This document shows positions 2,172 to 23,754 of a DNA stretch of 42,236 bases, one piece after another. Made by a program: the position numbers and the translations under genes. The stretch's first letter is position 1; each line of letters begins with the position of its first letter. This stretch comes from Opitutaceae bacterium (GTDB lineage: Bacteria > Verrucomicrobiota > Verrucomicrobiia > Opitutales > Opitutaceae), in contig JABIRI010000030.1 of assembly GCA_018667915.1 (NCBI GenBank), positions 1 through 42,236 on the forward strand, read 5' to 3'. The notes beneath the pieces were generated by a model. The model ran no database searches. It had not been told where the DNA came from and was given only the letters and a program-made list of their open reading frames with translations.

Positions 2172-4237
2172 ATGCCCTTTGCTGTTTCGTTATCTCGCTG
2201 CCTCCGCCGTCAGAGCAAACTGGGGCTGCTGATCGCGTTGATCTCGGGTTCAGTTTACGCCCTTCCCCAGCCCGGCGAAGTCTATCGAGAATACACGACC
2301 TCCAACGGCGGCAACGACTGGCGCGTCACTAACCCCGCCGCGACCGATCCCGGCGCCCTCGCCTTTTTGCCCAATCCGATTCTCGCCACACCATCGCTCG
2401 ACCTCACCCACGCGGTGCGCGCCGAGGCTGTGTTGGATGTTTGGGGCGGCCACCTGCGCACCCGCGACCGCCAGCTCCGTTTTAACGGCCACGACTGGCT
2501 CGACGTGCCCCGCCCGCTACTCCCTGGCACCGAGGTCTTCGAGTCACTCTATTACACCCAACACAACCCCACCATCGAGGTTCCTCTCGCCCACTTGCAA
2601 TCCGGCCCCAACACCTTCGAAGGCACCTGCACGCACAGTTTCACCACCGGCTGGGGTCAGTGGGGGCTCTATGCCCTCACCCTGAGGATCTACTACGATC
2701 CCGCGAAGGTCACCGCCCCAACCGGCCAAATCACCAGCCCCGTCTCCGGTGCGACGCTTACCGAAACCCCAACCGTCACCGTCGACGCTCAAGCCGCCTC
2801 AGGCATCAAACAGATCGACGTCATCGCATGGTATGACGGTTACGATGAGAACGGCGATGGCGTCGGACTCGATTGGCATGAATCCCGTTTCGTTCCCAGT
2901 CGCGGAGCGTCTCCGATGCTGCGTGACCACGTCGGCAGCGTAACTGCGCCACCGTATTCAATTTATTGGGACGCCACTCAAGTTCCCGATCAACCCGCCG
3001 CCGACCTTAAACTTGTCGCGCGCATCCAGGACCAAAACGGCCTGTGGTTTGTCACCCCAATTGTCGAAGACCTCACCCTCGAACGCACCGATTTCTCGGT
3101 CCGGCTGATCGGCGCCGACGAGCTCCCTCCTGCCTTCGGCATGCGCACCGGGGCACTCGATGAACGTTCCCTCACCCTGACGTTGCCGACTTCCATCGCG
3201 CTCAACCAAATCGCCGAGGTCGGCTTACACTACCGCACCTGGAACGGCTGGGACGGGTTTCACGAGCCGTGGCAGCTCAATGACTTCACTCACCCCAATG
3301 ACGGCAAGAACCACCACTACGATTACGATGTCATCGCCGTGCCGCCCTCCGCTCTGCTCTCCGACGGCAACACGTTCACGATTCGTTCCGACACCGAAGA
3401 GCACGCCCTCGAGGTGCTCGCTCCCGGCCCCGCGCTCACCCTGCGCACGCGCATCACGTCACGCCCTACACGCCTCACCAATCTCTCCGCCCGCACCTTC
3501 GCCGGCAGCGGCGACGAACGCCTCATCCTCGGGTTCGTGATCGCTGGGACAGAACCCCATTCAATTCTCAGCCGCGCCATCGGGCCTGGCCTGCAGCCCT
3601 TTGGCGTCACCGGGGTTCTAGCCGACCCCACCCTGAACCTCTTTCGCGGCAACGAATCACTGGCTACCAACGACAACTGGAGCGAAGCGGCCAACTCCAC
3701 GACCCTCGCGACCGCCGCGGCGCAACTCGGCGCGTTCGCACTCACGCCCGACTCCCGTGATGCCGCCGCACTCGAGACGATCCCAGCCGGGAGTTACACC
3801 CTACACGTAGCCGACGCCAGTGACGCTACCGGAGTCGCTTTGGCCGAAGTCTATGATCACAACGGACCTGGCTCCGCCGACACCCTGCGCATGATTAATC
3901 TCTCCGTGCGCGCTCGTGTGCGAGGTGGCGACGACACGCTCATTGCGGGGTTTGTCGTGACCGGCGAAAATCCCTTGCGCGTGCTCCTGCGCGGTGTGGG
4001 GCCAAGCCTTACCGGGTTCGGTATTTCTGATCCCGTTTCCGACCCTCGCATCACCCTCTTTAGTTCGACCACAGAGATCGCCTCCAACGACGATTGGAAC
4101 AGCGATCCGATCGCACAATCCGCTGCCGCCGGCGTCGGGGAGTGACGCGTTTAGCACCGGGCGCTTACACCCTCCACATCAGCGGCGCACCCGACGACAA
4201 CGGTATCGCCCTCGTAGAAATCTACGCGCTGCCATAG
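2172..4237 (+). CDS. Secreted carbohydrate-type protein with C-terminal tandem repeats; frameshifted near 4140
   Basis: The first frame runs from an ATG at 2172 (an in-frame start at 2067 also exists) to TGA at 4143-4145. Residues 1-30 are a signal peptide ending VYA. Residues about 31-185 and 330-430 are beta-rich stretches with many Trp/Tyr (WNGWDGFHEPWQLNDF), reminiscent of carbohydrate-binding modules, with an Ig-like section between. From about residue 435 there are two copies of a repeat: LILGFVIAGT, then SRAIGPGLQPFGV and PAGSYTLHVAD in copy 1; LIAGFVVTGE and LLRGVGPSLTGFG in copy 2. The end of copy 2 (APGAYTLHISG, VEIYALP, stop 4235-4237) lies in the next frame after a GGGG run, so one base is missing; copy 2 is also about 12 residues short there. 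With one base restored the product is 688 residues. No catalytic motif recognised. Confidence 0.7.
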
Positions 4238-4291
4238 CCGCATTGCCTCCTTCCCAAAATTCCGGTTCTACTGATCGCAACTCCCCCGATC

Positions 4292-4804
4292 ATGTCGACG
4301 CATACCGTCTCAACCCAACTCCCCGTAGCCGCTCGCTACCTGCCGCCGATCCTCATCTTGGCAGGAATCCTCGTAACCGCCTACGGAGCTAACAAAGTTT
4401 GGCTGGGTTACGAAAGTCGCAACTGGCCCCAGACCCCGGGCATCATTCGTAGCGCGGACGTGGAGGAGTCCTACAAAACCGAGAAGTCGGGCAGCGGATC
4501 CAATCGTTACAAGGTTTACGAAGCCCAACTCACCTACGACTACCAAGTCCTTGGTCGGGCTTACACGGGCGACCGCATCAGTTTCGGTCACGGCCCAACG
4601 CGCCAACAACATCAGGTGCAATCCTTCGTCGACCGCATGCCCGTTGGTTCCGGCGTGACCGTTTTTTATCAGCCCGACAACGCCGCTCAAAGTGTTCTGC
4701 TCCCCGGCGGTCTGGAATTGCGACCGTGGGGTTTCATTGCGGTCGGCATCGTGTTTTTCTTCGGCGGTTTTTGGGTCGCTCGAAAAAACCGCCAGGCCAC
4801 GTAA
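4292..4804 (+). CDS. DUF3592 family membrane protein
   Basis: 170-residue protein with a membrane segment near residues 18-36 (PPILILAGILVTAYGA) and a second at about 146-163 (WGFIAVGIVFFFGGFWVA). Between them is the DUF3592 beta-domain: WPQTPGIIRSADVEES, then YEAQLTYDYQVLGRAYTGDRI, and GSGVTVFYQPDNAAQSVL. This is the usual layout of the family, whose function is unknown. It follows the frameshifted secreted protein by about 55 bp on the same strand and precedes the CE15 esterase by 30 bp, so the three may be cotranscribed. No regulatory site seen. Confidence 0.85.
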   Translation: MSTHTVSTQLPVAARYLPPILILAGILVTAYGANKVWLGYESRNWPQTPGIIRSADVEESYKTEKSGSGSNRYKVYEAQLTYDYQVLGRAYTGDRISFGHGPTRQQHQVQSFVDRMPVGSGVTVFYQPDNAAQSVLLPGGLELRPWGFIAVGIVFFFGGFWVARKNRQAT

Positions 4805-4834
4805 CCCAAACGCAGACGTATTCTTTTTCACCCC

Positions 4835-6139
4835 ATGTCCTACCCCAACGTTCCCCCCGTGGCTCCGCTGTTAGCCGCCTCCCTCGCCGCCATGACCTTC
4901 ATCCCCGATGCCGATGCCCAACCGGATGGCTTCAACTACGACGAAGCCCTGGTGCCTGCCTACGCCCTACCCGACCCTCTGGTGAGTCTTGCCGGCAAGC
5001 CCATCACCAACGCGAAGGCGTGGCAAAGTCATCGGCGCGCCGAGGTGCTCGGCCTCTTCGAGGATCATGTCTTTGGTCGCACGCCATCGGCCGACATCGA
5101 CGTGCAGTTCGAACTACTCGAAGGTGACGATCAGGCCTACGACGGACGGGCTACGCGCAAACAAGTGCGCATGCACTTCCGGGCAAATGATCACCACGTC
5201 GCCGCGGACCTTTTGATCTATCTCCCCAACGATGCCAAGGGTCCAGCGCCGCTTTTCGTCGGGCTCAACTTTAACGGCAATCACACGACGACCCCCGATC
5301 CCGCCGTGCCCGTAAATCAAAACTGGATGCGCGCCACCAATCGGGATGGCGTCATCGATCATCGCTCGAGCGAAGTGGCCCGCGGAACCTCCGCCAAGCG
5401 CTGGGCTATCGAAGCGGCGATCGCCCGTGGCTACGGCGTCGCGACGATGTATTGCGGTGACCTCGATCCGGACTTTGACGACGGATTTCAGAACGGTATT
5501 CACCCCCTGTTTTATCGTGACGGGCAAACCCAACCTGATGCCCACGAATGGGGCACGATCGGCGCATGGGTCTGGGGCCTAAGTCGCGCGATGGACTATT
5601 TCGAAACCGATGCGACCATCGATCACGAGCACGTCGCGGTCCTGGGTCATTCACGTTTAGGAAAATCTTCGCTCTGGGCCGGCGCGAGCGATGAACGCAT
5701 CGCCATCATCATCTCCAACAACTCCGGTTGCGGCGGAGCCGCCCTCGCCCGCCGTCGCTTCGGTGAGACGGTGCAGCGCATCAATACCAGCTTCCCGCAT
5801 TGGTTCAATGATGCCCACCAAGCGTATAACGAAAACGAGGACGCTCTACCCGTGGACCAACACATGCTCATTGCTCTGATGGCCCCACGACCCGTCTACA
5901 TCGCCAGCGCCACCGAAGATGTATGGGCGGACCCCCGCGGTGAATTCCTCGCCGGTAAACACGCCGAAGCCGTCTACGCGCTTTTTGGGAAAACCGGCCT
6001 GACCGTCGAAGACCAACCCGCCCCCGACACCCCCATCGGTGATTATATCGGATACCATCTACGCACCGGAAAACACGACGTGACCGCTTACGACTGGGAG
6101 CAATACCTCAAATTCGCCGATCGGCACTTCGGGCGGTAG
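4835..6139 (+). CDS. CE15-type glucuronoyl esterase (carbohydrate esterase)
   Basis: 434-residue secreted alpha/beta hydrolase. Family CE15 cleaves ester bonds between glucuronic acid on xylan and lignin alcohols. A signal peptide spans about residues 1-28 (ending DADAQ). Landmarks: GRTP at 81-84, LFVGLNFNGNH at 140-150, nucleophile S273 in GHSRLGKSSLW, SGCGGAALARRRFGE at 297-311, and H414 in TGKHDVT. Length is normal for bacterial CE15. Some bacterial members place the catalytic acid directly before SGCGG; here that position is N296, so the acid is more likely in the SATEDVWADPRGE loop (E361/D362), as in members using the canonical position. Lies with the sulfatase and other secreted enzymes. 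Family call is strong; the exact substrate is an inference. Confidence 0.88.
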   Translation: MSYPNVPPVAPLLAASLAAMTFIPDADAQPDGFNYDEALVPAYALPDPLVSLAGKPITNAKAWQSHRRAEVLGLFEDHVFGRTPSADIDVQFELLEGDDQAYDGRATRKQVRMHFRANDHHVAADLLIYLPNDAKGPAPLFVGLNFNGNHTTTPDPAVPVNQNWMRATNRDGVIDHRSSEVARGTSAKRWAIEAAIARGYGVATMYCGDLDPDFDDGFQNGIHPLFYRDGQTQPDAHEWGTIGAWVWGLSRAMDYFETDATIDHEHVAVLGHSRLGKSSLWAGASDERIAIIISNNSGCGGAALARRRFGETVQRINTSFPHWFNDAHQAYNENEDALPVDQHMLIALMAPRPVYIASATEDVWADPRGEFLAGKHAEAVYALFGKTGLTVEDQPAPDTPIGDYIGYHLRTGKHDVTAYDWEQYLKFADRHFGR

Positions 6140-6184
6140 TCAATATCACCTTCCGCTGTAACTAGCGGAGTTAGCTAAAGTAAC

Positions 6185-6227
6185 GCCGTGGTTCAGCCGG
6201 CGTCAGAAATGCCGGCTGAAGCACGGC
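6185..6227. repeat. Long intergenic hairpin between convergent genes
   Basis: Arms at 6185-6201 and 6211-6227 pair over 17 positions with one mismatch, around a 9-nt loop. The core is TTCAGCCGGC paired with GCCGGCTGAA. It sits 45 bp after the CE15 stop and has no T-run on either side, so it resembles a REP-type element more than a terminator. It shares no obvious sequence with the GTCGGGC family. Confidence 0.65.
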
Positions 6228-6298
6228 ACTACGCTCAACCGATCGCGGTTAGCCTTACACCGCCAAGGCCTGTTGATCGGTTGAAGCTTTAACAAAAA

Positions 6299-6322
6299 GA
6301 GCCCGCCGGTTAGGGCGGGCTC
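6299..6322 (-). terminator. Rho-independent terminator of the 1044-aa secreted protein gene
   Basis: GAGCCCGCC (6299-6307) pairs with GGCGGGCTC (6314-6322). On the minus strand the hairpin is followed by CTTTTTGTT, a proper U-tract. It lies 40 bp after the stop of the minus-strand gene starting at 9496. Confidence 0.88.
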
Positions 6323-6361
6323 GGAATAATTGAGAGCAGTTAAGAAACTGCGGGGGCCGGC

Positions 6362-9300
6362 TTACTTACCTTTGCCCTTTTTCGCACTCTTGTCCGATTT
6401 CTCCGACTTGGCTGATTTATCGGATTTCTTGGCCGACTTCTCGGATTTGGCCGACTTTTCAGACTTCGCGGATTTCTCCGACTTTTTGCCTTGGTCGTGT
6501 GGCACGCCCACGGTTGTCGTGCTGCTGGTCACGTTGCCTGCCGCATCCGTGGTTTCGATCGTGACCGTATAAATCCGGCCGGTGCCCTTGCCCGAGCGTT
6601 CGGCGCGAAGGTTGGCGGTCAGATCACCGGTAATCACGGTATCGTTGACGGTGTTGCCATCGGCGGCGCCATTATCGGGCTCGTTGCTGGTGATGGAAAC
6701 GATCTTGCTGGTGACTTCGCCACCGGCGTCGTTGGCATCAACCGTGAACGATACGGCGACCATCTTGTGATTGGCTGGCCAGAGCGTGCCGATCGAAGGT
6801 GCCACACTGCTAACTTCCGGAGCGGTGGTATCCTCGACGGTGACAGTGAAGCTGCCTTCCGAAACGTTACCGGCGGCATCCGTAGTAGTGAGGCTGATCG
6901 TCGTTTCGCCGAGTGGCAGCGTGCTGCCGGAAGCGATGCTGGACTCGACGGTCACGACGCCATCGACGAGATCGCTGGCAGAGGCATCAAACGAAGCAAC
7001 CGCACCATCAGCGCTGGTGGCCTCCAGGACGAGGTCAGCTGGAACGCTGAGTTCTGGAGCGGTGGTGTCTTGGACGACCACGTCGAACTCAACGGAAGCT
7101 TCATTCCCCGCCGCATCGGTAGCAGTTGCAGTCACGACAGTGGTGCCAACCGGGAAGACGGAACCGGATGCAATCGATGTCTCAACGGTGACGGAACCGT
7201 CGGTTTCGTCAGAAGCGGAAATCGAGAAGTCGACCACGGCTCCGTCCGGGCTGGTAGCTTCGGCCGCTGCCTGCGTTTCGATGGATATAACCGGAGGAGT
7301 TGAATCGGAACCTCCAGTGGCCGTGGTTTCAAATGACTCGGTCACTTCGTTGCCGGCGGCATCAACGACCGTGAGACTCACATCGAAATCGCCACCCTGC
7401 TCGTAAGTGTGGGTGCCGGTGACAATACCGGTAGCCGGATCGATCACGCCCTCGGAGGTCGTGCCATCACCCCAATCAAAGATCGCGGTGTGTTGGTCGC
7501 CGGAGTTGGCGTCGGTGATTTGAGCCGTGACGGTGAATTCTTCGCCCGCGACGATTTCGGCGGGCATTTGAATGTCGCCCACCGTAGGAGGGCTGGAGAT
7601 GCCGATGGCGAACAACGCGAGCTCCGGCGCGGTGCCGGTGATGGTATTGTTCACTTCGTCCACTTCGATGGTGACGTCGATCCAGGTTTCGCTGGCCTCG
7701 TCGAAGTAGAACAACTTGAGGTCGGCTTCGTCTTCGGCCGCAACCGCGTCTTCAGAGTAGTCGATCGTGACGTCGACATAACCGTCGAACGTGGCAGTCG
7801 TGCTGATGCTGTAATAAGCGTTCACATCGTTGTTCACAATGGGGCTGAAGCCGGCCGGCAGAGCCGGACCCACGGGGAGTTGGGACGCAGTGGAAACACC
7901 GGCCTCGACCACGTTATCGAAGACGAGTTCGACACCCGTTCCAGCCTCAACCGTAACATCGGTGCCGACTGGAGTAGGCAGAGGCTCTTTCAACTCGAGC
8001 GAGAAGTTACCAAAGCTCACGCGGGAGCCTTCGACATAACCGTAGGTCTGCAGGTTGTAGGTGCCAGGGACGCCGACGATGCGCACGCGTTGGCGCGCCT
8101 TGGTCGTGCCCCAAACGGAGGCGCTGATACTGAGCTGTTGGCTAGCCGAGCCATTCTCGTAAGTCGTAACGTGACCGTTGATGTTCGCCCTGGAAATAAG
8201 GATTTCCTCGGTAGCACCCGCGGGTTCGATCACGTCAAAGGTCAGCTCTGTTTGCGTGGTATCGAAATCGTAACTTCCGACGGTTTGCGTGTCGCCACCG
8301 ACAAAGGTGTGGGTAGGTGCCCGATAGTCGTAGATGCCTAATGCATAGCTGAGGTATTCACCGGGAGTGGAATAGTCGTAACCGTTGATGTTGATGCGGT
8401 CGAATTTCCATTCACCGGAAGTGACGGCGCCCGACAACTGCTTGGTGGTCTGGTCAAATTGACCGTAAATGTTGCGCGACTCGCCAGCCGGGTTCGGGCT
8501 CGGGGCGGTCCAACGACCTTGCACGTAACCGCCGTTGATATCGTCGAGGCTGAGGAAGCCAGTCGGGTTCAAGTCAAACAGCGCCATCCCGAGATTCTCG
8601 GTGTAGTCCACTTGGGTGATGACCCCTGCTTCCGCGACGGTGTTGTTCCGGTAGAAGTAGAGCTGGGAGCCGGTGAAGTAGGCGTAGTTGTAGAGGCGGT
8701 AGTTACCCGGCAGGAGGTTGGTGTATTCGTAAGAACCGTTGCCCTGATAGCTCTTATTCCCAAGCGATGTTCCGGAGGAATTATAGAGCTGTATATTGCC
8801 GCTGGTTGGAGTCGCGGCACCCGAGAAAGTGATGTCGCCCACAATCGCGCCGGCCGCGAAGGATGCGTCCAATTCCCACGTGGCGGTAGCGCCGGAGGCA
8901 GGGACGGTGATCGACTGGCTGGCCAAGGTCTGGGCGGAGGAATCTCCGTCCGTGCTGGTAACGGTGGCACTGCCGTTAATCGATATATTAGCCATCGGGA
9001 GAACCACCGCATAATCGAGGTTCTGCGAATAGTAGCTGAAGTAAGTTGGACTGGAGCCTCCAGAGTTTCCGTGCGCACGGAGATTCGAAACCACATCCAA
9101 AGTGCCATTGGCAACTTGCACGTCGGCGAGAACGCGGGCGGAGCTAAGGGAGATGTTGTTCGAAATCTCCTCTTCGGCGCCGACCGAAATTTGGGTGGGC
9201 AGATTCACGGAAACGTAACCGTAAGAACCGCTCGGCACTTCAGGATAGAGCGTGAAATTGAGCTTCCAGGTCTTTCCTGCAGGCACGAGAATCGAACAGG

Positions 9301-15595: not shown

Positions 15596-17248
15596 TCACT
15601 CTCCCGCTTTTAGCACCACCCATGAGGTCGAGCTGATGCGCCACTCGGCCGCGGTTACCACTGAGTTGAGGCCCGTCGCCAGTGCTGGGGTCGTGAGCAA
15701 CAACCGGTTCGGTCTCTGATTTAGCCAGGCCGTCGCAGCCGCATCGTCCGCAAAAAACTCTAAGCGGCGACCATCAAGATGGCAGAGCCACGCGGGGCGT
15801 TTACTCGCTTCGCGGCCCGGCCAAAAATACCCGATCGTTTCTCCTGCCGGGGTCCGCTCACCCAACCATTTGGCCGCCGGCTGATAGCTTCGCTGTTCAT
15901 CGATGACCGGCAAAACGGTGTGCATCGCGGTGCCGGCGATCAGCGCGCCCCCGAGAGCCAAGGTTGTCCAGCCTTTAAGCTCGTCACGCGGCATCGACCG
16001 ACCCGACCACCAGCCCACGTTCATCATAACCAATCCCAGCACGATCAGCCCGGGCCGCAAACTCACCATCAATCCGGGATACTTCCGCAACGGATCCCAG
16101 CCCGACGTTCCCATGCCCCACCCTGCGACGACCAAGACAAGGATCAACAGTCCGATCACAAACCAGAACCCGCTCCAACCTCGGCCGACGCCTCTGCGCC
16201 AACGCGTCGCCCAAGGCCCGGCGCTGGCCCGCAACCAATTCGCGACCATCAATGCTAAGGCGGGATAGATCGGCAGCAGGTAAACGTTCCGCTTGGTCGA
16301 CGCCACGGTGAAAAAGACCAACGGCGCCAGAATCCAGATAGCCAACAATCGCCAGTTACGGTCCGCCCGCTGCGTCTTCCAACCGTGATACATGGCCGGA
16401 ACCAGCAAGAAAACCCACGGGAGAAAATCCACCGCCAACGACTTTCCATAATACCACCACCCTTTCCCGCCGTGTCCGCGCGTGGTGGACTGAAATCGAT
16501 CAAAATTCTGCAGGTAAAACTCCTCCCCCAGCACACCCCAGCCAATCCGTTGTCCCAGCATCACATACCACGGTAAAGCAACCGCGAGGGAAACGAGCGC
16601 TAACGGCGCGAGCTGCCACAATGGGCGCCATTCCCGATTCCAACCATGCCACAGCGTTAATATCAGACCGGGTAACAACACACCCAACGGCCCCTTGCCG
16701 AGAATCGCAACACCGAACGCGGCGAACCCCAACGCCCGCCAGCCCCAATTCGTCTTGCTCCCTTGCTCGGCCGCATCTCCCCGCAAATAACACAGCAGTC
16801 CCACCGCTTGGGCGGCCGCATACCCGAGATCCACCTGAACATTGGTCGCCTGTTGCCAAATTAGCGGCGTCCCGGCGAGCAATGTGGCCGCCATGCGCCC
16901 GCCATCATCACCCCAGCCAAATCGTCTTCCTAGTCGCGCGGTCGCCAGTAACAACACCACCGCAAAAATCAGCATCGGCACCCGCGCAGTGAATGGACCG
17001 ATTCCCCCGGTAACGAGTCCCGTGACTCGTGCGCCCCAATAAGCCAGAGGCGGATAATCAAGCCAGATAGCACCGTTCTGCGTCGGCACCACCCAGTCGC
17101 CCCGCGCTGCCATTTCGATTGCGGGCAATGCCACATCAGGCTCATCCGGATACCACCAATCGCGACGCGCCAATCCACCGAGAAACAGTCCCCCGATCAA
17201 CAGCCACACGAGGCCCCGAATATGTTTCGCTTCAGGCTGGTAGAGCAT
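15596..17248 (-). CDS. ArnT/PMT-like membrane glycosyltransferase (GT39/GT83-type)
   Basis: 550-residue polytopic membrane protein with about 11-12 hydrophobic segments. The acidic first-loop motif after TM1 is WWYPDEPDVA (D35/E36), the hallmark of GT-C enzymes that move a sugar from an undecaprenyl- or dolichyl-phosphate carrier to a lipid or protein outside the membrane. WVVPTQNGAIWLDYPPLAYW (51-70 region) and STKRNVYLLPIYPALALM further on are typical of the ArnT/PMT_2 group. Its start overlaps the end of the GT2-GtrA gene by 17 bp, so the two are cotranscribed. Taken together they would make a lipid-linked sugar, flip it and transfer it. Acceptor (lipid A, protein or glycan) is not readable. 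Confidence 0.87.
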   Translation of the reverse strand: MLYQPEAKHIRGLVWLLIGGLFLGGLARRDWWYPDEPDVALPAIEMAARGDWVVPTQNGAIWLDYPPLAYWGARVTGLVTGGIGPFTARVPMLIFAVVLLLATARLGRRFGWGDDGGRMAATLLAGTPLIWQQATNVQVDLGYAAAQAVGLLCYLRGDAAEQGSKTNWGWRALGFAAFGVAILGKGPLGVLLPGLILTLWHGWNREWRPLWQLAPLALVSLAVALPWYVMLGQRIGWGVLGEEFYLQNFDRFQSTTRGHGGKGWWYYGKSLAVDFLPWVFLLVPAMYHGWKTQRADRNWRLLAIWILAPLVFFTVASTKRNVYLLPIYPALALMVANWLRASAGPWATRWRRGVGRGWSGFWFVIGLLILVLVVAGWGMGTSGWDPLRKYPGLMVSLRPGLIVLGLVMMNVGWWSGRSMPRDELKGWTTLALGGALIAGTAMHTVLPVIDEQRSYQPAAKWLGERTPAGETIGYFWPGREASKRPAWLCHLDGRRLEFFADDAAATAWLNQRPNRLLLTTPALATGLNSVVTAAEWRISSTSWVVLKAGE

Positions 17249-18512
17249 GGCCGCGCCAAGTCAGGTCGTGGTTAAGAAAGTAGTTCCACAGCGTAGCGAT
17301 CGCAAACCCCGCAGTCGGCGCGAGGATCGCAAACCCTATTGCGTCTGCCGGTCCGAGAAAATATGCCGCGACCGCCCGACTGATGATCGCCCCTGTTCCC
17401 GCGACGAGGCCAAAGAGCAACACTCCGCGCACAATCGCCGGTAGCGAAACATGCCTGCGATCACGAAAGGTCCACGCGTTATTCCAGACGTAATTCGACA
17501 AGGCCGAAACCCCTACCGCTCCGGCGGTCAGCGTGCTCGTCTCGATCCCGCCGAACCCTTTTAGCAGCATCCACTGCGCCAGCGCATACACGCCCACTCC
17601 GCTCAACCCGACCAAAGCAAATTTAAGAAAACGCGGACTCACCACGCTGCGGGTGAGAAGCTCGATCAGCGCAAAGCCAAACTCCCATGCCACCCGCGCG
17701 GAGAGTTTGCTTTCCCCGCATTGCCGCGGAGCAAACACATACGGAACCTCCTCCACTCTTGCTGGTCGCATCACCGCCATCAGCTCCATGAGAATCTTGT
17801 AACCCCGAGGATTGAGCCGCGAACTGATCCGATTAAATTCCGCCCGGCGCACGGCAAAAAAACCACTCATCGAATCGCTCACGGAAAGCCCCAAAACTAA
17901 GTTACAGGCCACCGTCGCTGCCCGCGACAAAACCACGCGACCTCGGCCCCAGTGACCCACACCACCACCAGCCGCATAGCGCGTCCCTACCGCAAGCGGC
18001 GCGTCATCCAAAGCCGCCACCAATTCGGGGACCTGCGTAATGTCGTGCTGCAGGTCGGCATCCATCACCACGACCCGCTCTCCACCCGCCACACTCAGTC
18101 CAGCCACGACCGCCGAAGACAAACCCCGACAATCCAAGCGCCTAAAAATCCGGATACGTCGATCTTCCGCCGCCAACTCTTCCGCAACTTTCCACGTTTC
18201 GTCGGGAGAGTCATCATCGACTACGATCAACTCCCAGTCCGCCTCACTGCCCAATACGTTACGCAATGCGGTCACAAACAGTGGCAGGCTTTCACGTTCG
18301 TTGTAAGTGGGGATGACTACGGAAACGCGCACCTGCCGACCAGGCACACCACGAGAAGAAGATGTAGTGGCCACACCTGGTGAGTCAGGGGGCAATTCAT
18401 CGGGTTGAGTCGATGGTTTCTGACGAAAAACGGTAGGCTTCCTGATTGTGTCTCGATCGCCGGTAGCTGAGTTACCAACGAAACCTGATGAGAGTGGTGG
18501 ATTTCTGATCAC
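17232..18512 (-). CDS. Polyprenyl-phosphate glycosyltransferase (GT2) fused to GtrA flippase domain
   Basis: 426 residues starting at a GTG (18512). The first ~60 residues are polar and probably a linker or an over-long start. The GT2/DPM1-like domain spans about 62-300: VVIPTYNERESLPLF, ELIVVDDDSPDETW (nucleotide-sugar binding DDD) and VVMDADLQHD (metal-binding DxD-type). A GtrA domain follows at about 300-420 with four hydrophobic segments (FLKFALVGLSGVGVYALAQW; SNYVWNNAWTFRDRR, the GtrA signature). GtrB-type enzymes load a sugar on undecaprenyl phosphate and GtrA flips it; here both are on one chain. Overlaps the ArnT-like gene by 17 bp. ATTAC boxes lie at 18561-18576, 49-64 bp before the start. 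Confidence 0.88.
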   Translation of the reverse strand: MIRNPPLSSGFVGNSATGDRDTIRKPTVFRQKPSTQPDELPPDSPGVATTSSSRGVPGRQVRVSVVIPTYNERESLPLFVTALRNVLGSEADWELIVVDDDSPDETWKVAEELAAEDRRIRIFRRLDCRGLSSAVVAGLSVAGGERVVVMDADLQHDITQVPELVAALDDAPLAVGTRYAAGGGVGHWGRGRVVLSRAATVACNLVLGLSVSDSMSGFFAVRRAEFNRISSRLNPRGYKILMELMAVMRPARVEEVPYVFAPRQCGESKLSARVAWEFGFALIELLTRSVVSPRFLKFALVGLSGVGVYALAQWMLLKGFGGIETSTLTAGAVGVSALSNYVWNNAWTFRDRRHVSLPAIVRGVLLFGLVAGTGAIISRAVAAYFLGPADAIGFAILAPTAGFAIATLWNYFLNHDLTWRGHALPA

Positions 18513-18544
18513 ACCGGATAGACGAACCGGGTCCCAGTGAGTTC

Positions 18545-18576
18545 AGTGTATGACAACCTTGTAATGCGGGCGTAAT
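18545..18576 (-). promoter_or_regulatory. Putative response-regulator box and promoter before GT2-GtrA
   Basis: On the minus strand two direct repeats ATTAC (18572-18576 and 18561-18565) start exactly 11 bp apart, the spacing expected for tandem OmpR-type binding. A -10-like TACACT (complement of 18545-18550) follows about 10 bp later, placing the boxes over the -35 region. The geometry matches PmrA-type class II activation. The same pentamer occurs before the response regulator gene (20814-20851). Inference from pattern only. Confidence 0.5.
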
Positions 18577-18581
18577 ATTCT

Positions 18582-18608
18582 AGGCCCAACGGCAATTCCT
18601 TTGGGCCT
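18582..18608. other. Hairpin in the histidine kinase-GT2 gap
   Basis: AGGCCCAA (18582-18589) pairs with TTGGGCCT (18601-18608) around an 11-nt loop, in the 236-bp gap (18513-18748) between the histidine kinase stop and the GT2 start. No U-tract follows. It could slow read-through from the kinase gene into the glycosyltransferase operon. Confidence 0.4.
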
Positions 18609-18748
18609 GAAGGACTCCCGGAAGGAAACGCCGGTCAATCCCGAGGGCGCTATTCTATGTGGTGACTGCAGCCACCGGAAAGTCACGAGCTTGTTAAGCT
18701 CGATATTGATACCGGAACGGGTCGAATTCTTGCACAAGAAAACGACGA

Positions 18749-20092
18749 CTAACCTGGAGAGACCTGCGGCAATTCGACCAAAAACTCCGTCACCTCGACC
18801 GTGGAAGAAACCAATCGAATCGTTCCGCCATGAGCGTGAGCAATCTCCCGACAGAGACTAAGGCCGAGACCATTGCCGCGCGTCGCGTGAGATTCGTCGG
18901 TTTGGAAGAATCGCTCAAAAATTCGTTCCCGATTGGTCTCCGTAATCTGCGGACCGCTGTTGCTGATTGTGAATTGAAGCAACCCATTCCGCGATCGAAG
19001 TTGGTAGTCGATCAAACCACCGGGACCGTTGTATTTGGTCGCATTGCTAAACAGGTTGAGAAAGAGGCGATGCAGTTGACAGAAATCACCCTTAACCCAC
19101 AGGCCAGGGTCGATTTTATGCTTCACGACTAGGGCCTGATTTTCCGAGAGCATATCGACATCCTCGGCCATTTCATCGAGGAGTTTACTCAGGTTGATCG
19201 GGGCGTAGTCTGCGCTCGCTTTACCAGCGTCAAATCTAGCCAAGATCAAGAGTTGATCGATGATTTGATGCATGCGATCGACTTCCTGTTGAGCACTGAC
19301 GATTCCCTGTTCGGCCGGATCCGACAGCTGGTGGTTGGCTACGAGCTTCTCCAGTTCGCCTTTGATGATAGTAAGTGGCGTGCTGAGCTCATGGGACGCA
19401 TCCCCCGCAAATCGTTTGGCTTGAAGATAGCTTTTTTCGATGCGGTCCAGCATGCCGTTGAGCACTTCTGTGAACTGCCCGATTTCATCATCCGATCGAA
19501 TAATCGGTAAGCGTGCGGATAAGTCGTTGGTGCCTATCTTGGCAGCCGTCGCTGTCGCATCCCGAATCGGAGCCAAAGAGCGACCTGCCACGAGCCAACT
19601 CATCCACGCAGTGAATAGGCTCACAAGAGGAACCAGCAAGAATTGGATCGAAGCTAAGTCGTCTAGTATGTCGTCGAATTCTTCCAGTTCGAATCCGGTG
19701 ACAACGACCACGCCCTGCCGTTCCGAGCTATAGATGCGCCAACGCGAACCTTGATAGGATTGAATACTAAAACCCAGATCCTCTCGGCCAATTTCAACTA
19801 TCTCGAGAGGGAAACTTGGCGTGCGCCCCAACAAAGCACCGTCGGCCTCAATTACGGCCAGCCCTTCCCCATGCTCAAACTCGTCCTCTTCAAACTCGTC
19901 AGCCTCGACTTCGCCATTCGCAATATCCGCTCTTATCGCCAGAATCTCTATCGCGAGGTGGCCATCTATTGCTTCGAGATCTTCCAGATAAACATAGAAC
20001 CACGTTCCTGCGGCGAGAACGATGAGGGCAAATGCAGTAATCGCCGCCGTGCAACATGCGATTCGGCCTCGAAGCGTCAGGGGATATTTCAT
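18749..20092 (-). CDS. Sensor histidine kinase (PmrB/QseC-like) with acidic periplasmic segment
   Basis: 447 residues: TM1 about 11-36, periplasmic part 37-148, TM2 about 149-170, HAMP to ~225, dimerisation/phosphoacceptor helix with H234 in FAGDASHELSTPL, then the ATPase domain with N-box LFSNATKYN, G1 NSGPQI, F-box ERIFERFFQTD and G2 GNGLGLSL. All catalytic parts are present. The periplasmic segment holds a dense acidic cluster at 61-76 (E61, E63, D65, E66, E68, E69, D70, E71, E73, E76) with several ExxE patterns; in PmrB, ExxE motifs sense Fe(III), so a cationic ligand is likely here (inference). Its ATG overlaps the stop of the response regulator gene (coupled translation). Confidence 0.9.
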   Translation of the reverse strand: MKYPLTLRGRIACCTAAITAFALIVLAAGTWFYVYLEDLEAIDGHLAIEILAIRADIANGEVEADEFEEDEFEHGEGLAVIEADGALLGRTPSFPLEIVEIGREDLGFSIQSYQGSRWRIYSSERQGVVVVTGFELEEFDDILDDLASIQFLLVPLVSLFTAWMSWLVAGRSLAPIRDATATAAKIGTNDLSARLPIIRSDDEIGQFTEVLNGMLDRIEKSYLQAKRFAGDASHELSTPLTIIKGELEKLVANHQLSDPAEQGIVSAQQEVDRMHQIIDQLLILARFDAGKASADYAPINLSKLLDEMAEDVDMLSENQALVVKHKIDPGLWVKGDFCQLHRLFLNLFSNATKYNGPGGLIDYQLRSRNGLLQFTISNSGPQITETNRERIFERFFQTDESHATRGNGLGLSLCREIAHAHGGTIRLVSSTVEVTEFLVELPQVSPG

Positions 20093-20760
20093 TCGGCGGC
20101 AATGGAGTAACCGACTCCACGAACGGTTTGAATGAGTTTCGGAGAGAAGCCCTCATCGATTTTTCCCCGAAGCCGACGCACCGCGACATCAATCACATTG
20201 GTTTCTGGGTCGAACTGATAGCCCCAAATTTTTTGGCTGAGAAACGTGCGCGATAGCACCCGGCCGGGACTGCTTAGAAAGGTCTCCAGTAGCGCAAATT
20301 CTCGGGACGTGAGTTCGATCTGCTTGTCCCCCCGTGTTACTGTGCGTTGGTGAAGATTGAGCGAGAGGTCAGCGAGCGTGAGGACCGTCAACGAATCCCC
20401 TGTTCGGCGGCGAATAATCGCCCGCAACCGAGCGACCAGTTCGATGACGGAAAAGGGTTTGGGTAGGTAATCGTCTGCTCCGATCTCGAGCCCTTCTACG
20501 CGTTCATTCACATCGCCACGAGCGCTCAGGAGAATTACCGGAACCGGACTGTGTTGGGCACGTAATTTACGTAACAGGCTAAGTCCGTCGCGCCCGGGAA
20601 GCATGATGTCGAGGACCAGCGCATCGAAGTTTTCGTTGGTGGCGATCCGCAACCCATCATCACCGTTTCCACAAACTTCCACCGCCCAGCCCTGCTCGGT
20701 CAAACCAGACGCAATGAGGGAGGCGACCTTTCTTTCATCTTCAATAACGAGGATTCGCAC
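20089..20760 (-). CDS. OmpR/PhoB-family response regulator
   Basis: 223 residues from the GTG at 20760 (MRILVIEDERKV); an ATG 15 codons upstream adds a non-conserved-looking leader. Receiver domain: acidic pocket E8/D9, phosphoacceptor D51 in LVLDIMLPG, T/S position S79 in LLSARG, K101 in LPKPFS. The winged-helix DNA-binding domain covers about 130-223 (ELTSREFALLETFLSSPGRVLSRTFL ... VIDVAVRRLRGKID ... TVRGVGYSI). The stop overlaps the kinase ATG. The likely DNA targets are the ATTAC boxes upstream of itself and of the GT2-GtrA gene. The pair would act as a PmrAB/PhoPQ-like regulator of the neighbouring glycosyltransferases (inference from context). Confidence 0.92.
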   Translation of the reverse strand: MRILVIEDERKVASLIASGLTEQGWAVEVCGNGDDGLRIATNENFDALVLDIMLPGRDGLSLLRKLRAQHSPVPVILLSARGDVNERVEGLEIGADDYLPKPFSVIELVARLRAIIRRRTGDSLTVLTLADLSLNLHQRTVTRGDKQIELTSREFALLETFLSSPGRVLSRTFLSQKIWGYQFDPETNVIDVAVRRLRGKIDEGFSPKLIQTVRGVGYSIAAE

Positions 20761-20813
20761 GTGCTGATCCCTAGGCCGAAAAGGAAGATAAACGAGTCTA
20801 TTCAACCACCGAG

Positions 20814-20851
20814 ATTACACCATCATGAGTATTAAATTACGGTGATGTAAT
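20814..20851. promoter_or_regulatory. ATTAC-box region upstream of the two-component system
   Basis: ATTAC occurs at 20814-20818 and 20836-20840 on the plus strand (22 bp apart, two helical steps of 11) and again on the minus strand at 20847-20851, 11 bp further. The last two form an inverted repeat ATTAC-N6-GTAAT. The region is 54-91 bp before the GTG at 20760 and fits autoregulation. The rest of the gap to 21063 holds nothing else I can identify. Confidence 0.5.
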
Positions 20852-21063: not shown

Positions 21064-21803
21064 TTAGCGATCGGTGACGTGTAAGAAGGAAGTCTTCTTT
21101 TTAAGGGTTCGGAGTGTCGCCCAAATTAGGAAGGCGGCGCCGAGAAAGGCGAAGCGAACCGTCCCGAGATCCCAGCTGCCGTGGAGGCGCAGCTCACCCA
21201 AAACTTCGAAGAGCGTGAACGTCAGAACCACGGCGAAGAAACCGTTGTATTCCCTTTTCAGCACGTTCCTGAACGAGAAGGGCAGATTCGGTCGGCGGAA
21301 CCCCTGAAGCTTGGGAATGATCGCCGGCGTATGCTTGGTCCACTCCAGATATTGCACCCCAATTTTCGCCGTAGGTAACACTCCTCGGCGAAAATTATCC
21401 GCTCGTAGTAGATGAAAAATGCGAGCGTGAAGATGAGGGTGAAGGGAAGCGAATGGAAGAAGAGCACCACGCCGAGGAACATGGAATAGTTCCCCAAATA
21501 CAGGGGGTTTCGCACCAGCGAATATATCCCCGTGGTGTTGGGCGTGTCGGCGATCTGGGCCTTGGCGTTGCGGCCCGAGGTGTTCTTGGGCGTGTAGCCG
21601 ATAGTATAACACCGGATCAATAGCCCCAGGAGAGATACCCCGAGGCAAGTGAGGTCCCAATACCGATCCCATGTGGCTGAATGCCCGATATAGCGGTAAT
21701 CGAGCATCATGTAAAAGCCAGCGGTCACAAAGGTAATGGGTAGGTAGCTGCGCCAGCGGAATAACCAACTCCCGGATTCTTCAAGTTCTTCAATGAGTGC
21801 CAT
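21064..21803 (-). pseudogene. Isoprenylcysteine carboxyl methyltransferase (ICMT)-like membrane methyltransferase, frameshifted at ~21370
   Basis: The frame starting at the ATG 21803 encodes a membrane protein with IRCYTIGYTPKNTSGRN, LVRNPLYLGNYSMFLG and YYERIIFAEECYLRRK, a pattern of ICMT/phospholipid-methyltransferase-like enzymes (RNP.Y.gn and E motifs). After CGGCGAAAATTGGG the frame turns to non-family sequence. The natural continuation (GVQYLEWTKHTPAIIP, then LPFSFRNVLKREYNGFFAVV and a final TM with a basic end) lies in another frame ending at 21064. Adding one A to the AAAA run rejoins them as RRKIGVQYLEW, giving 246 residues. Likely a SAM-dependent methyltransferase of a lipid or prenyl group. 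It may be intact in the cell if the gap is a sequencing error. Confidence 0.75.
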
Positions 21804-22135: not shown

Positions 22136-22618
22136 TTGGAAAACGAATGTCATTTTTCGCCGGATCGGGTGCACCGTTACTCGCTGATCCATCGGTTCAA
22201 CCCGCTCATGGGCGGTAATCGCCTGATGTTGTGGATCGGGCTCAATCCGAGCACGGCCGACGAACAAAAACTCGACCCTACCCTCACCCGCATCGCCCGG
22301 TTTTCGGAACGTGAGGGCATGGACGGATTTTGGATGGGCAACCTGTTCGGGATGCGCGCCACCGACCCGAAGGTCATGAAAGCCGCTCCCGATCCAGCCG
22401 GCCCCGAGAATGATGCCGCGCTACTCGAAGCTGCCGCCCAATGCGAAAAAGTGGTCGCGGCCTGGGGCGTGCACGGCGAGTTCCTCGACCGCGCAAATCA
22501 CACCATCAAACTGCTCGCCGATTTCGATCTCTGGTGCGTCGGTCAAACCAAAGACGGTCACCCGCGCCACCCGCTCTACGTGCGCGCCGATCAGCCGCTG
22601 GTGCGGTGGGAGCCGTAA
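22136..22618 (+). CDS. DUF1643 domain protein
   Basis: 160 residues starting at a TTG (22136), the only start that keeps the conserved N-terminus (RYSLIHRFNPLMGGNRLMLWIGLNPSTADEQKLDPTLTRIARFSEREG). MGNLFGMRATDP, ENDAAL and VAAWGVHG are further family hallmarks; DUF1643 length is normally 150-170, so the gene is complete. Function is unknown; these genes often sit in accessory regions. Its last 28 codons recur at 23668-23754 with identical residues but different third bases. It lies at the left edge of a small toxin-antitoxin island. Confidence 0.88.
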   Translation: MENECHFSPDRVHRYSLIHRFNPLMGGNRLMLWIGLNPSTADEQKLDPTLTRIARFSEREGMDGFWMGNLFGMRATDPKVMKAAPDPAGPENDAALLEAAAQCEKVVAAWGVHGEFLDRANHTIKLLADFDLWCVGQTKDGHPRHPLYVRADQPLVRWEP

Positions 22619-22713
22619 GCGAACGTTTTCGATCAAGCATTAACGTTACCTTGGTGTTATTCAATCGGTAGGATTTCCCTTGAATAGCAGGGAATCAAAT
22701 TTGGACTGAAATC

Positions 22714-23232
22714 GTGCCGGCTGAAGAATCCTTCAAGATAACACCCCTCGATACCTCCATTCACCAACGAGAGGAATTCGACTGTGGTGTAGGCAGCCTG
22801 AATAACTATTTGGCAAAGCAGGCCCGGTTGGACGTAAAACGCTCCGCGGCCGGCTGCTGGGTCTTAATCGAATCCGATGACCCTACGAAAATCATAGGCT
22901 ACTATACGATTTCGACCGCCGCCGTTCTCGCGGAGGAACTCGACACCGTCCCCCAAACCACCCGAAAACACTTTCCCAACTATCCCCAGATCGGAGCACT
23001 TTTGCTGGGTCGGCTCGCCGTAGCTCTTAAACGTCACGGCCAAGGCTTGGGCGGGATTCTTCTCATCGATGCACTACGTCGCTGTCGCTACTTGGAGATC
23101 CCCGCCGTATTGGTTTTGGTTGATCCCAAAGATGAATCGGCAATCCGATTTTATCAAAAATTTGGCTTCCGCCATCTCAATGAAACACGGATGTTCCTGC
23201 CCATGCGCGAGGTGGACGCTTGGCTCAAATAA
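22714..23232 (+). CDS. GNAT-family acetyltransferase toxin (TacT/AtaT-like)
   Basis: 172 residues from a GTG at 22714. Typical TacT-type features: FDCGVGSLNNYLAKQARLDVKR (22-43 region), a strand with IIGYYTIS (60-67), the acetyl-CoA-binding segment LGRLAVALKRHGQGLGGILL (98-117), and FYQKFGF (146-152) with the Tyr147 general-acid position. Toxins of this class acetylate the amino group of charged tRNA and stop translation. The DUF1778 antitoxin gene is next to it but on the opposite strand, tail to tail with a 6-bp gap, rather than upstream in the same operon as is usual. The P-loop reads HGQGLG rather than (R/Q)xxGxG. Confident as GNAT of this group; toxicity is inferred. Confidence 0.86.
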   Translation: MPAEESFKITPLDTSIHQREEFDCGVGSLNNYLAKQARLDVKRSAAGCWVLIESDDPTKIIGYYTISTAAVLAEELDTVPQTTRKHFPNYPQIGALLLGRLAVALKRHGQGLGGILLIDALRRCRYLEIPAVLVLVDPKDESAIRFYQKFGFRHLNETRMFLPMREVDAWLK

Positions 23233-23238
23233 TAGCGA

Positions 23239-23562
23239 CTACCTGTTGTCCAAATCACTCTCCACTGACTTCTGATAACGCTTTTTTGCGCGAACCACAC
23301 TGGCGGGTGATTTCCTAACTGGAGCCAATAACGCACCCATCAATCGTTGAGATTCTTCCGCACTTAATCGCAATAACCGAGCGTCCTCCATCACCCGCGA
23401 CGCGGCGGCCTTGGCCTCTGTAATCACGAACTCGGCCAATGATGCACCCTTTAATTCTGCGGCTCGTGCTATCACGAGTTTGTCCTCCGGCGATACACGC
23501 GCAACTAGCCTCGCGCTCTTTGTAGCACGACGAGGAGTTTGAGTTGCGGCGATGGTGGTCAT
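23239..23562 (-). CDS. DUF1778 family antitoxin (ribbon-helix-helix)
   Basis: 107 residues from the ATG at 23562; the frame open to 23730 is read antisense through the DUF1643 remnant and should not be used. N-terminal ribbon-helix-helix: KSARLVARVSPEDKLVIARAAELKGASLAEFVITEA. The C-terminal toxin-binding tail is LSAEESQRLMGALLAPVRKSP, the counterpart of the family's antitoxin motif. TacA/AtaR-type antitoxins bind and neutralise GNAT toxins and repress their operon. Here it converges on the GNAT gene, so it cannot repress the toxin simply by sharing its promoter. GTGTG-N9-CACAC (23573-23591) immediately upstream is a candidate operator. Confidence 0.85.
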   Translation of the reverse strand: MTTIAATQTPRRATKSARLVARVSPEDKLVIARAAELKGASLAEFVITEAKAAASRVMEDARLLRLSAEESQRLMGALLAPVRKSPASVVRAKKRYQKSVESDLDNR

Positions 23563-23572
23563 CGCATGAAAC

Positions 23573-23591
23573 GTGTGCACAATCGTCACAC
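23573..23591 (-). promoter_or_regulatory. Candidate operator before DUF1778 antitoxin
   Basis: GTGTG (23573-23577) and CACAC (23587-23591) form an inverted repeat with a 9-nt spacer, 11-29 bp upstream of the antitoxin ATG. Position and symmetry suit a ribbon-helix-helix autorepressor site. Short half-sites mean chance is possible. Confidence 0.4.
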
Positions 23592-23667
23592 ATCGCAAGC
23601 TCAACCTGAACTCGCCTTGACGCCTCGCGCTGCTCACGTGGTGGGTCCCCCCGCAGACCACAATCCT

Positions 23668-23754
23668 TGGTGCGTCGGTCAGACCAAAGATGGTCATCCC
23701 CGACATCCCCTCTACGTCCGTGCCGACCAACCGCTCGTGCGGTGGGAGCCGTAG
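23668..23754 (+). pseudogene. 3' remnant of a second DUF1643 gene
   Basis: These 28 codons plus stop encode WCVGQTKDGHPRHPLYVRAD and the QPLVRWEP end, identical in every residue to the end of the DUF1643 gene at 22532-22618. At DNA level 12 codons differ, all silently, and the stop is TAG rather than TAA. No DUF1643 sequence precedes it. The frame remains open back to 23539 but with unrelated sequence. It is therefore a fragment of a diverged homologue, not a fresh duplicate. Confidence 0.85.

What the first reader, a model, noticed from the sequence alone, without database searches (positions are those of the whole stretch)
15596..20805. Two-component system next to a GT2-GtrA fusion and an ArnT-like transferase: a PmrAB-Arn-like module
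On the minus strand, in order of transcription, lie an OmpR-type regulator, a kinase with an ExxE-rich acidic periplasmic cluster (residues 61-76), a GT2 enzyme fused to a GtrA flippase domain, and a GT39/ArnT-like transferase overlapping it by 17 bp. In Gamma-proteobacteria PmrAB controls ArnC/ArnT plus a flippase. Here the load, flip and transfer steps are packed in two ORFs beside their apparent regulator. Known: PmrB senses Fe(III) through ExxE motifs. Inferred: shared regulation and envelope target.
Basis: partly seen in the sequence, partly recalled or inferred. Interest (0 to 1): 0.65.

Follow-up and report, generated by a model that had tools for sequence, protein, structure and literature searches.

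The report
Sensor-controlled cell-surface sugar operon
A bacterium of the phylum Verrucomicrobiota carries a stress sensor that appears to be wired, by a recognisable DNA switch, to two enzymes that probably attach a sugar (most likely mannose) to its outer surface; relatives have the same sensor beside other surface-modifying enzymes, in two of them the classic polymyxin-resistance (arn) set.

Summary
The four genes are real. The regulator is of the CusR/HprR class, not PmrA. Its expected palindrome (ATTAC-N6-GTAAT, core of the published E. coli CusR/HprR box) lies upstream of the regulator (20836-20851); a near-copy (ATTAC-N6-GTCAT) lies upstream of the GT2-GtrA gene (18550-18565). Only 3 places in the 4.28 Mb genome match ATTAC-N6-GTMAT; two are these. 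In related Opitutaceae the same regulator/kinase pair, often with the box, sits beside other envelope-lipid enzymes: a complete arnTBCAD-type operon (2 genomes), GT39 + PAP2-GT2 fusion + LAB_N (1), or an LtaS-like protein with or without PAP2 (7 loci). Its specifics are not: the "GT2-GtrA fusion" has the full dolichyl-phosphate-mannose-synthase architecture with 15 of 16 GDP-mannose contacts conserved, no ArnA was found in the genome, and ExxE motifs are not conserved. Best reading: stress-controlled mannosylation of lipid A or another surface glycan. Regulation is well supported by sequence; signal, sugar and target are inferred. New variant of a known kind.

The parts
20836..20851 (.). operator-like palindrome ATTAC-N6-GTAAT upstream of the regulator (76 b from its likely start)
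   Evidence: matches the core of the E. coli CusR/HprR box read; a perfect copy upstream of the regulator also in G005, G002, G014, G021, G024, G243, G244, G275
20089..20760 (-). OmpR-family response regulator nearest to the CusR/HprR/CzcR class (likely start GTG 20760; the longest ORF starts at 20805)
18749..20092 (-). sensor histidine kinase nearest to the CusS/CzcS class; ~110-residue periplasmic sensor predicted PAS/CACHE-like
18678..18752 (+). remnant of the C-terminus of a PepSY-domain gene, convergent with the kinase; an intact PepSY gene lies at the same place in G001
18550..18565 (-). operator-like site ATTAC-N6-GTCAT between kinase and GT2-GtrA; identical 16-mer in G005
17232..18332 (-). 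GT2-GtrA protein with the full two-domain architecture of polyprenyl/dolichyl-phosphate mannose synthase (likely start GTG 18332; the longest ORF starts at 18512)
15596..17248 (-). GT39/ArnT-like GT-C glycosyltransferase, overlaps the GT2 gene by 17 b

Best explanation
This is a two-component-controlled envelope glycosylation module. A CusS-like kinase with a folded periplasmic sensor phosphorylates a CusR/HprR-class regulator in response to an envelope stress (metal, oxidant or cationic agent; not determined). The regulator binds ATTAC-N6-GT(A/C)AT sites upstream of its own gene and upstream of the GT2-GtrA/GT39 gene pair. The GT2-GtrA protein makes polyprenyl-phosphate-mannose from GDP-mannose on the inner face of the inner membrane. 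After flipping (by its own membrane part or another protein), the ArnT-like GT39 enzyme moves the mannose onto lipid A or another periplasmic glycan. Shown by sequence: gene order, families, operator-like sites and their recurrence, no ArnA found, LpxC present, conservation of GDP-mannose contacts. Inferred: signal, binding, direction of regulation, sugar, flipping, acceptor.
For: Operators: 3 places in 4.28 Mb match ATTACN6GTMAT, two at this locus; 0.08 strand-matches expected in the window, 3 found. In the 16 genomes with the kinase at E<=1e-76 (of 252), 11 of 23 perfect palindromes lie within 300 b of the regulator start or kinase stop, 0.003 expected if spread evenly. In a named collection 13 of 74 regulator upstream regions hold a perfect box, none in 200 shuffles of each. 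The box equals the core of the published E. coli CusR/HprR box, and the regulator's C-terminal region resembles that of CusR. Same pair beside a complete arn operon in G243 and G244 with a box between regulator and ArnT, beside GT39 + PAP2-GT2 + LAB_N in G002 with a box, beside LtaS-like proteins in 7 loci, 4 with PAP2. GT2: DPMS 5mlz over residues 1-359 of 366, E 5e-63; ArnC 6e-18; 15 of 16 published PfDPMS contacts identical, while E. coli ArnC differs at L69, H94, F177 and K178. GT39: ArnT structure 5ezm E 4e-22. LpxC present.
Against: No experiment. The second site deviates from the perfect palindrome (GTCAT), and the relaxed pattern is less specific in relatives (G005: 2 of 9 places at the locus; G001: 1 of 6; G243: 2 of 10). 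The scan found no sigma-70-like promoter towards GT2; its two hits point the other way. 4 of the 14 loci outside the six-member side clade show no box next to the pair (G035, G013, G123, G251; in G251 a GTMAT-type site lies ~0.9 kb upstream). The pair has other neighbours elsewhere: TonB receptor and/or PepSY in 4 loci, RND-like efflux genes (by eye) in G123. The cassette is rare (5 of 76), and only the window's genome is seen with all four genes, because the G005 contig ends inside GT2. In G020 the GT2-GtrA gene overlaps a 525-aa ORF that no Pfam or NCBIfam model recognises, with no such kinase at E<=1e-60 in that genome. The mannose inference rests on residues. Nothing shows that lipid A rather than protein, O-antigen or exopolysaccharide is the acceptor.
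Confidence: 0.6

Rival explanations
1. True PmrAB-Arn-like Ara4N system: the GT2 loads 4-amino-arabinose and the GT39 caps lipid A with it.
For: GT39 is homologous to ArnT; relatives G243 and G244 carry an arn operon at the same regulator.
Against: No ArnA orthologue found in a 99% complete genome: the best hits are methionyl-tRNA formyltransferase and a sugar-nucleotide dehydratase-like protein. The GT2 has DPMS, not ArnC, residues at the four positions where the two differ, apart from Tyr for Phe177. ArnB was not searched separately.
Confidence: 0.05
2. The gene pair glycosylates something other than lipid A (O-antigen side chain, surface protein or exopolysaccharide), as GtrABC or protein O-mannosylation systems do, while still being controlled by the regulator.
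For: GT2 + GtrA + GT-C is the three-component pattern for O-antigen modification (PMC11127046 passages); PMT Pfam hit; one other GT2-GtrA relative sits in what looks, by eye, like a polysaccharide locus (G064 = L019).
Against: GT39 is nearest to ArnT in NCBIfam and PDB; several recurring partners of the same regulator in relatives are lipid-A-type enzymes.
Confidence: 0.3
3. Chance neighbours: the regulator pair controls metal efflux or a PepSY protein and the GT2/GT39 pair merely lies next door.
For: 236-b gap and a PepSY remnant between the two halves; TonB, PepSY or efflux-like neighbours elsewhere; no promoter-like hit towards GT2.
Against: The same 16-base site lies between kinase and GT2 in both genomes where the two are seen together; the same pair recurs beside unrelated but functionally similar cassettes.
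Confidence: 0.1

Closest known systems
PmrAB (BasRS) regulon with arnBCADTEF and eptA, E. coli
   Same: two-component system wired to lipid-modification enzymes; eptA lies next to basRS in E. coli
   Different: regulator class (CusR-like, not PmrA), sensor (~110 residues; the E. coli BasS loop is about 30 as read by eye), operator, and enzymes (DPMS + GT39, no ArnA found)
CusRS / HprRS of E. coli
   Same: nearest regulator family and similar C-terminal region, operator core; the CusS sensor is among the fold matches
   Different: in E. coli the neighbouring genes are copper/silver efflux and hiuH-msrPQ; here envelope glycosyltransferases
Dolichyl-phosphate mannose synthase of Pyrococcus furiosus (PDB 5mlz)
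   Same: GT2 + GtrA-type membrane domain over the full length, DADLQH motif, GDP-mannose contacts
   Different: bacterial, so presumably undecaprenyl phosphate; F177 is Tyr; activity unknown
ArnT of Cupriavidus metallidurans (PDB 5ezm; species name recalled)
   Same: GT-C fold relative
   Different: 116.8 bits against an equivalog cut-off of 567; acceptor and donor unknown
GtrABC / three-component extracytoplasmic glycosylation
   Same: polyprenyl-phosphate sugar synthase, GtrA-type part, GT-C transferase
   Different: synthase and GtrA part in one protein; two-component regulation next door; no O-antigen genes recognised beside it in the ORFs scanned

Membership tests
PmrAB | regulator is a PmrA orthologue | tested here: not met
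   NCBIfam PmrA 182.3 bits (cut-off 330) versus CztR/SilR/CopR 258.7 (cut-off 279.2; also below it) and CusR 230.4; 35% identity to BasR versus 48% to CusR
PmrAB | conserved ExxE iron motif in a short periplasmic loop | tested here: not met
   sensor of ~110 residues (alignments); ExxE counts 7, 4, 2, 2 in window, G005, G001, G002 and 0-4 in the other 9 compared
PmrAB | PmrA box (direct CTTAA-type repeats; consensus recalled) | tested here: not met
   no match in the window with fewer than 2 mismatches; 7 with 2 mismatches against 10.0 expected, one of them (18560-18576) overlapping the CusR-type site
Arn (L-Ara4N) pathway | ArnA makes the UDP-Ara4N precursor | tested here: not met
   own-genome search with E. 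coli ArnA, 5 hits; the two best score as Fmt (218.2 bits, cut-off 201.5) and a dehydratase (98 bits to the ArnA-domain model, cut-off 294)
Arn (L-Ara4N) pathway | ArnB aminotransferase in the genome | not tested
   not searched in the own genome
Arn (L-Ara4N) pathway | ArnC-type loading enzyme | tested here: not met
   72.2 bits against cut-off 529; DPMS-type contacts
Arn (L-Ara4N) pathway | ArnT equivalog | tested here: not met
   116.8 bits against cut-off 567; homologous, not equivalent
CusR/HprR class | nearest regulator models and recognition region | tested here: met
   nearest models, though none reaches its curated cut-off; identity and C-terminal region
CusR/HprR class | ATTAC-N6-GTAAT operator upstream of its own gene | tested here: met
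   site present; binding not tested
CusR/HprR class | copper or oxidant (HOCl/H2O2) as signal | not testable with these tools
   no expression data
DPMS | GT2 + GtrA-type domain aligned end to end, GDP-mannose contacts | tested here: met
   residues 1-359 of 366 aligned to 5mlz; 15 of 16 contacts
DPMS | GDP-mannose:polyprenyl-phosphate transferase activity | not testable with these tools
   needs an enzyme assay
Three-component (GtrABC-type) glycosylation | flippase for the donor | tested here: inconclusive
   GtrA-type domain present, but the same domain is the membrane part of DPMS; PMC11127046 calls GtrA a 'proposed' flippase

The most novel reading that the evidence does not exclude
In Opitutaceae (Verrucomicrobiota) a CusR/HprR-class two-component system, not PmrAB or PhoPQ, is a general switch for lipid A/envelope capping. 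It works through one conserved operator to which lineages have attached interchangeable cassettes: full arn operon, LtaS-like transferase + lipid-A-phosphatase-like PAP2, GT39 + phosphatase-GT2 fusion + LAB_N, and in this genome a polyprenyl-phosphate-mannose synthase with an ArnT-like transferase that mannosylates lipid A.
Probability: 0.4. Interest if true: 0.7.

Novelty: new variant of a known kind. Interest (0 to 1): 0.55.

Why it matters
It suggests that 'sense envelope stress, cap the lipid' wiring exists in Verrucomicrobiota with a different regulator class from the Gammaproteobacterial one, and that the enzyme cassette is swappable while regulator and operator stay. That would make the regulon partly predictable across the family from a 16-base site, and offers a test of whether a copper/oxidant-type sensor controls lipid A chemistry in this phylum.

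Tried and rejected
Fe(III)/ExxE sensing: rejected, because the cluster is richest in the window protein and thins out in relatives. Ara4N: disfavoured for this genome. The third genome-wide place (C93:39440) was read: it lies inside an ORF (L075 position 5441 in 4047-8150), so I do not count it as a promoter site. Two further perfect boxes of G005 were fetched (L105, L106): no hit to the BLAST panel there. PmrA-box scan: chance level. Megablast of the GT39-GT2 stretch against plasmids: no match. Promoter/terminator scan 18300-18800: no terminator-like site; the two promoter-like hits are on the + strand over the box, pointing away from GT2. The RR tree has 22 rows (G021 left out because its regulator is split over two contigs); 10 of 19 inner branches are open, so repeated gain of cassettes is suggested, not proven; six rows (G029, G031, G036, G024, G016, G143) form a clade (100/99). 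The fold comparison of the sensor is dominated by generic PAS/CACHE matches and does not single out CusS. In the named collection only 6 of 80 loci show the envelope cassettes next to the pair, 3 of them genomes already seen (L114, L115, L125). Literature: the papers listed by searches (open-licence PMC; the lists of 38 and 74 were cut to 10) include none whose title or shown abstract describes this arrangement in Verrucomicrobiota; subscription journals are not held.
Full report
OBSERVATION. The four ORFs, their order, strand, domains and the 17-b overlap are as stated. Codon scoring favours later starts for the regulator (GTG 20760) and the GT2 gene (GTG 18332); the nearest relative has a stop 25 codons before the homologous GT2 start. 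The kinase and GT2 genes are 236 b apart.

WHAT THE PROTEINS ARE. The regulator's best NCBIfam model is the CztR/SilR/CopR subfamily (258.7 bits, under its cut-off of 279.2), then CusR (230.4) and HprR (223); PmrA is 182.3. It is 48% identical to E. coli CusR, 44% to HprR and 35% to PmrA/BasR. The kinase is nearest to the CztS/SilS/CopS subfamily (212.2 bits, cut-off 292.55). Its N-terminal 220 residues were modelled from a 20-row alignment (pLDDT 83.9): a long helix, a small sheet (76-81, 87-90, 107-113, 116-125, 128-135) and the second long helix. The matches are PAS/CACHE-type sensors, CusS 5ku5 among them (Z 9.0, rmsd 2.9, 113 aligned), but chemoreceptor, WalK and PhoQ domains score alike. 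The ExxE count is 7 in the window protein, 4 in G005, 2 in G001 and G002, and 0 to 4 in the other nine compared.

The GT2-GtrA protein aligns end to end with P. furiosus dolichyl-phosphate mannose synthase (E 5e-63; ArnC structures 6e-18 to 8e-18). PMC5526996 (passages; section 7) names residues that hold GDP-mannose; of 16 positions checked 15 are identical, and F177 is Tyr. E. coli ArnC differs at L69, H94, F177 and K178. So the fusion is a known architecture, and its likely donor is GDP-mannose. The GT39 protein is ArnT-like but far below the ArnT equivalog cut-off (116.8 against 567).

THE OPERATOR. PMC9302797 (one figure-legend passage seen) gives CATTACAAAATTGTAATG as the E. coli CusR and HprR box. 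The window holds ATTACATCACCGTAAT 76 b upstream of the regulator and ATTACAAGGTTGTCAT between kinase and GT2, the second letter for letter in G005. I wrote the pattern ATTACN6GTMAT after seeing both sites; in the own genome it has 3 places, two here and one inside an ORF. Relatives are the fairer test. In the 16 genomes that carry the kinase at E<=1e-76 (of 252 family genomes) there are 23 places with the perfect palindrome, and 11 lie within 300 b of the regulator start or kinase stop; about 0.003 are expected if places were spread evenly. At the locus: G000 1 of 2, G002 2 of 2, G005 1 of 3, G014, G021 and G275 1 of 1 each, G243 and G244 2 of 3 each. G001, G029, G031, G126 and G251 have perfect sites only elsewhere; G035, G123 and G143 have none. 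The relaxed GTMAT pattern is less specific: at the locus 1 of 6 places in G001, 2 of 9 in G005, 1 of 8 in G126, 2 of 10 in G243, 2 of 6 in G244. In a separate named collection, 13 of 74 regulator upstream regions hold the perfect box and none of 200 shuffles of each does (6 of the 80 loci gave no usable regulator; at least two of the 13, L115 and L125, are genomes already counted). So a minority of this class keeps the exact box, in organisms titled Verrucomicrobia, cyanobacteria, Burkholderiales and others.

NEIGHBOURS OF THE SAME PAIR. I read 20 loci (window plus 19; G013, G016, G024 and G036 come from the looser cut). Glycosyltransferase or arn type, 6 of 20: window; G005 (GT2, contig end); G002 (GT39, PAP2-GT2 fusion, LAB_N); G243 and G244 (ArnT, ArnB, ArnC, ArnA formyltransferase, ArnA dehydrogenase, ArnD, in that order, 24-54% identical to E. 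coli; no ArnE or ArnF hit); G126 (ArnT-like, plus an ArnA dehydrogenase next to an LtaS-like gene). LtaS-like type, 7 of 20 including G126: G001, G035, G014, G275 (these four with PAP2), G013, G021 (regulator split over two contigs, joined by inference) and G126. So 12 of 20 have an envelope-lipid type neighbour. The ArnA dehydrogenase of G243 passes the curated cut-off (579.9 against 294). 'LtaS-like' is loose: the best NCBIfam model is lipoteichoic acid synthase in the first four scanned, far below its cut-off (46.7 to 64.1 bits against 970). The two single-domain PAP2 proteins scanned with NCBIfam (G001, G035) match the lipid A phosphatase model NF028538 best but below its cut-off (147.4 and 119.1 against 275). 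The other 8: TonB receptor and/or PepSY in G029, G024, G143 and G016; other genes in G031, G036, G123 (RND-like, by eye) and G251 (a TonB-receptor hit 3.8 kb away). Six of these eight (G029, G031, G036, G024, G016, G143) form a supported clade (100/99). Outside it are 14 loci (13 in the tree plus G021): 12 have an envelope-lipid neighbour, and a box of either type is next to the pair in 10 (not G035, G013, G123, G251).

In the 80 named loci only 6 show such neighbours (L114, L115, L116, L117, L120, L125), three being genomes already counted; L117 and L120 have no perfect box. The contig of L125 has the length of the G002 contig and is titled Opitutaceae, which names the family. The GT2-GtrA relative of G020 overlaps a 525-aa ORF that no Pfam or NCBIfam model recognises.

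PepSY. G001 has an intact PepSY gene convergent with the kinase, overlapping by 4 b, and a GTCAT-type box before it. In the window a 24-codon C-terminal remnant ending at the same place relative to the kinase survives at 18678-18752. The GT2/GT39 pair may have replaced or joined an older PepSY unit at a box-bearing site (inference).

MECHANISM. Shown by sequence: families, operator-like sites and their recurrence, LpxC in the own genome and all 6 relatives searched, no ArnA found. Inferred: kinase signal, activation, GDP-mannose use, flipping, transfer to lipid A. Passages of PMC11127046 describe the general three-component logic and call GtrA a proposed flippase; passages of PMC12064563 show clade-specific two-component systems beside eptA in Vibrio, a parallel for swapping regulators. 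That Francisella FlmK also transfers mannose is recalled; the passages I saw (PMC4688374) speak of galactosamine.

VERDICT. New variant of a known kind.

Noticed in passing
window 21064-21803 (-): LmtA-like (lipid A 1-phosphate methyltransferase family, TIGR04571) gene directly upstream of the regulator, broken by a change of frame: model positions 1-151 and 151-250 lie in two frames. It gave no hit at this place in G005. A weak LmtA-like hit also lies beside the pair in L152.
   Followed up: partly
window 22136-23751: Compared with G005, a GNAT-like ORF (22714-23232) and an ORF that looks like a DUF1778 antitoxin (23239-23730, minus strand) lie between DUF1643 and the PIN gene; a 45-residue partial second copy of DUF1643 (23617-23751) overlaps the latter. 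It may be a toxin-antitoxin insertion; the GNAT, PIN and DUF1778 names are by eye, not searched.
   Followed up: no
L016 (G005:C115) ends: Both contig ends translate to the same short peptide (LLYTSPSPRDRG), which I recall as a sequencing-adapter remnant; it cuts the GT2 gene, so GT39 could not be checked there.
   Followed up: no
L016 1574-1576: The G005 kinase orthologue has an in-frame TAG past its middle: a decaying kinase or an assembly error.
   Followed up: no
L102 4442-4813 and 6847-7266 (G251): By eye, a GtrA-like small membrane protein lies just before the regulator and an EamA/SMR-like one just after the kinase: possibly another flippase-type partner of the same pair.
   Followed up: no
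L098 7371-7386 and L099 6706-6721: In G243 and G244 a second perfect box lies at the kinase stop, before a gene that looks by eye like a glycosyltransferase.
   Followed up: no
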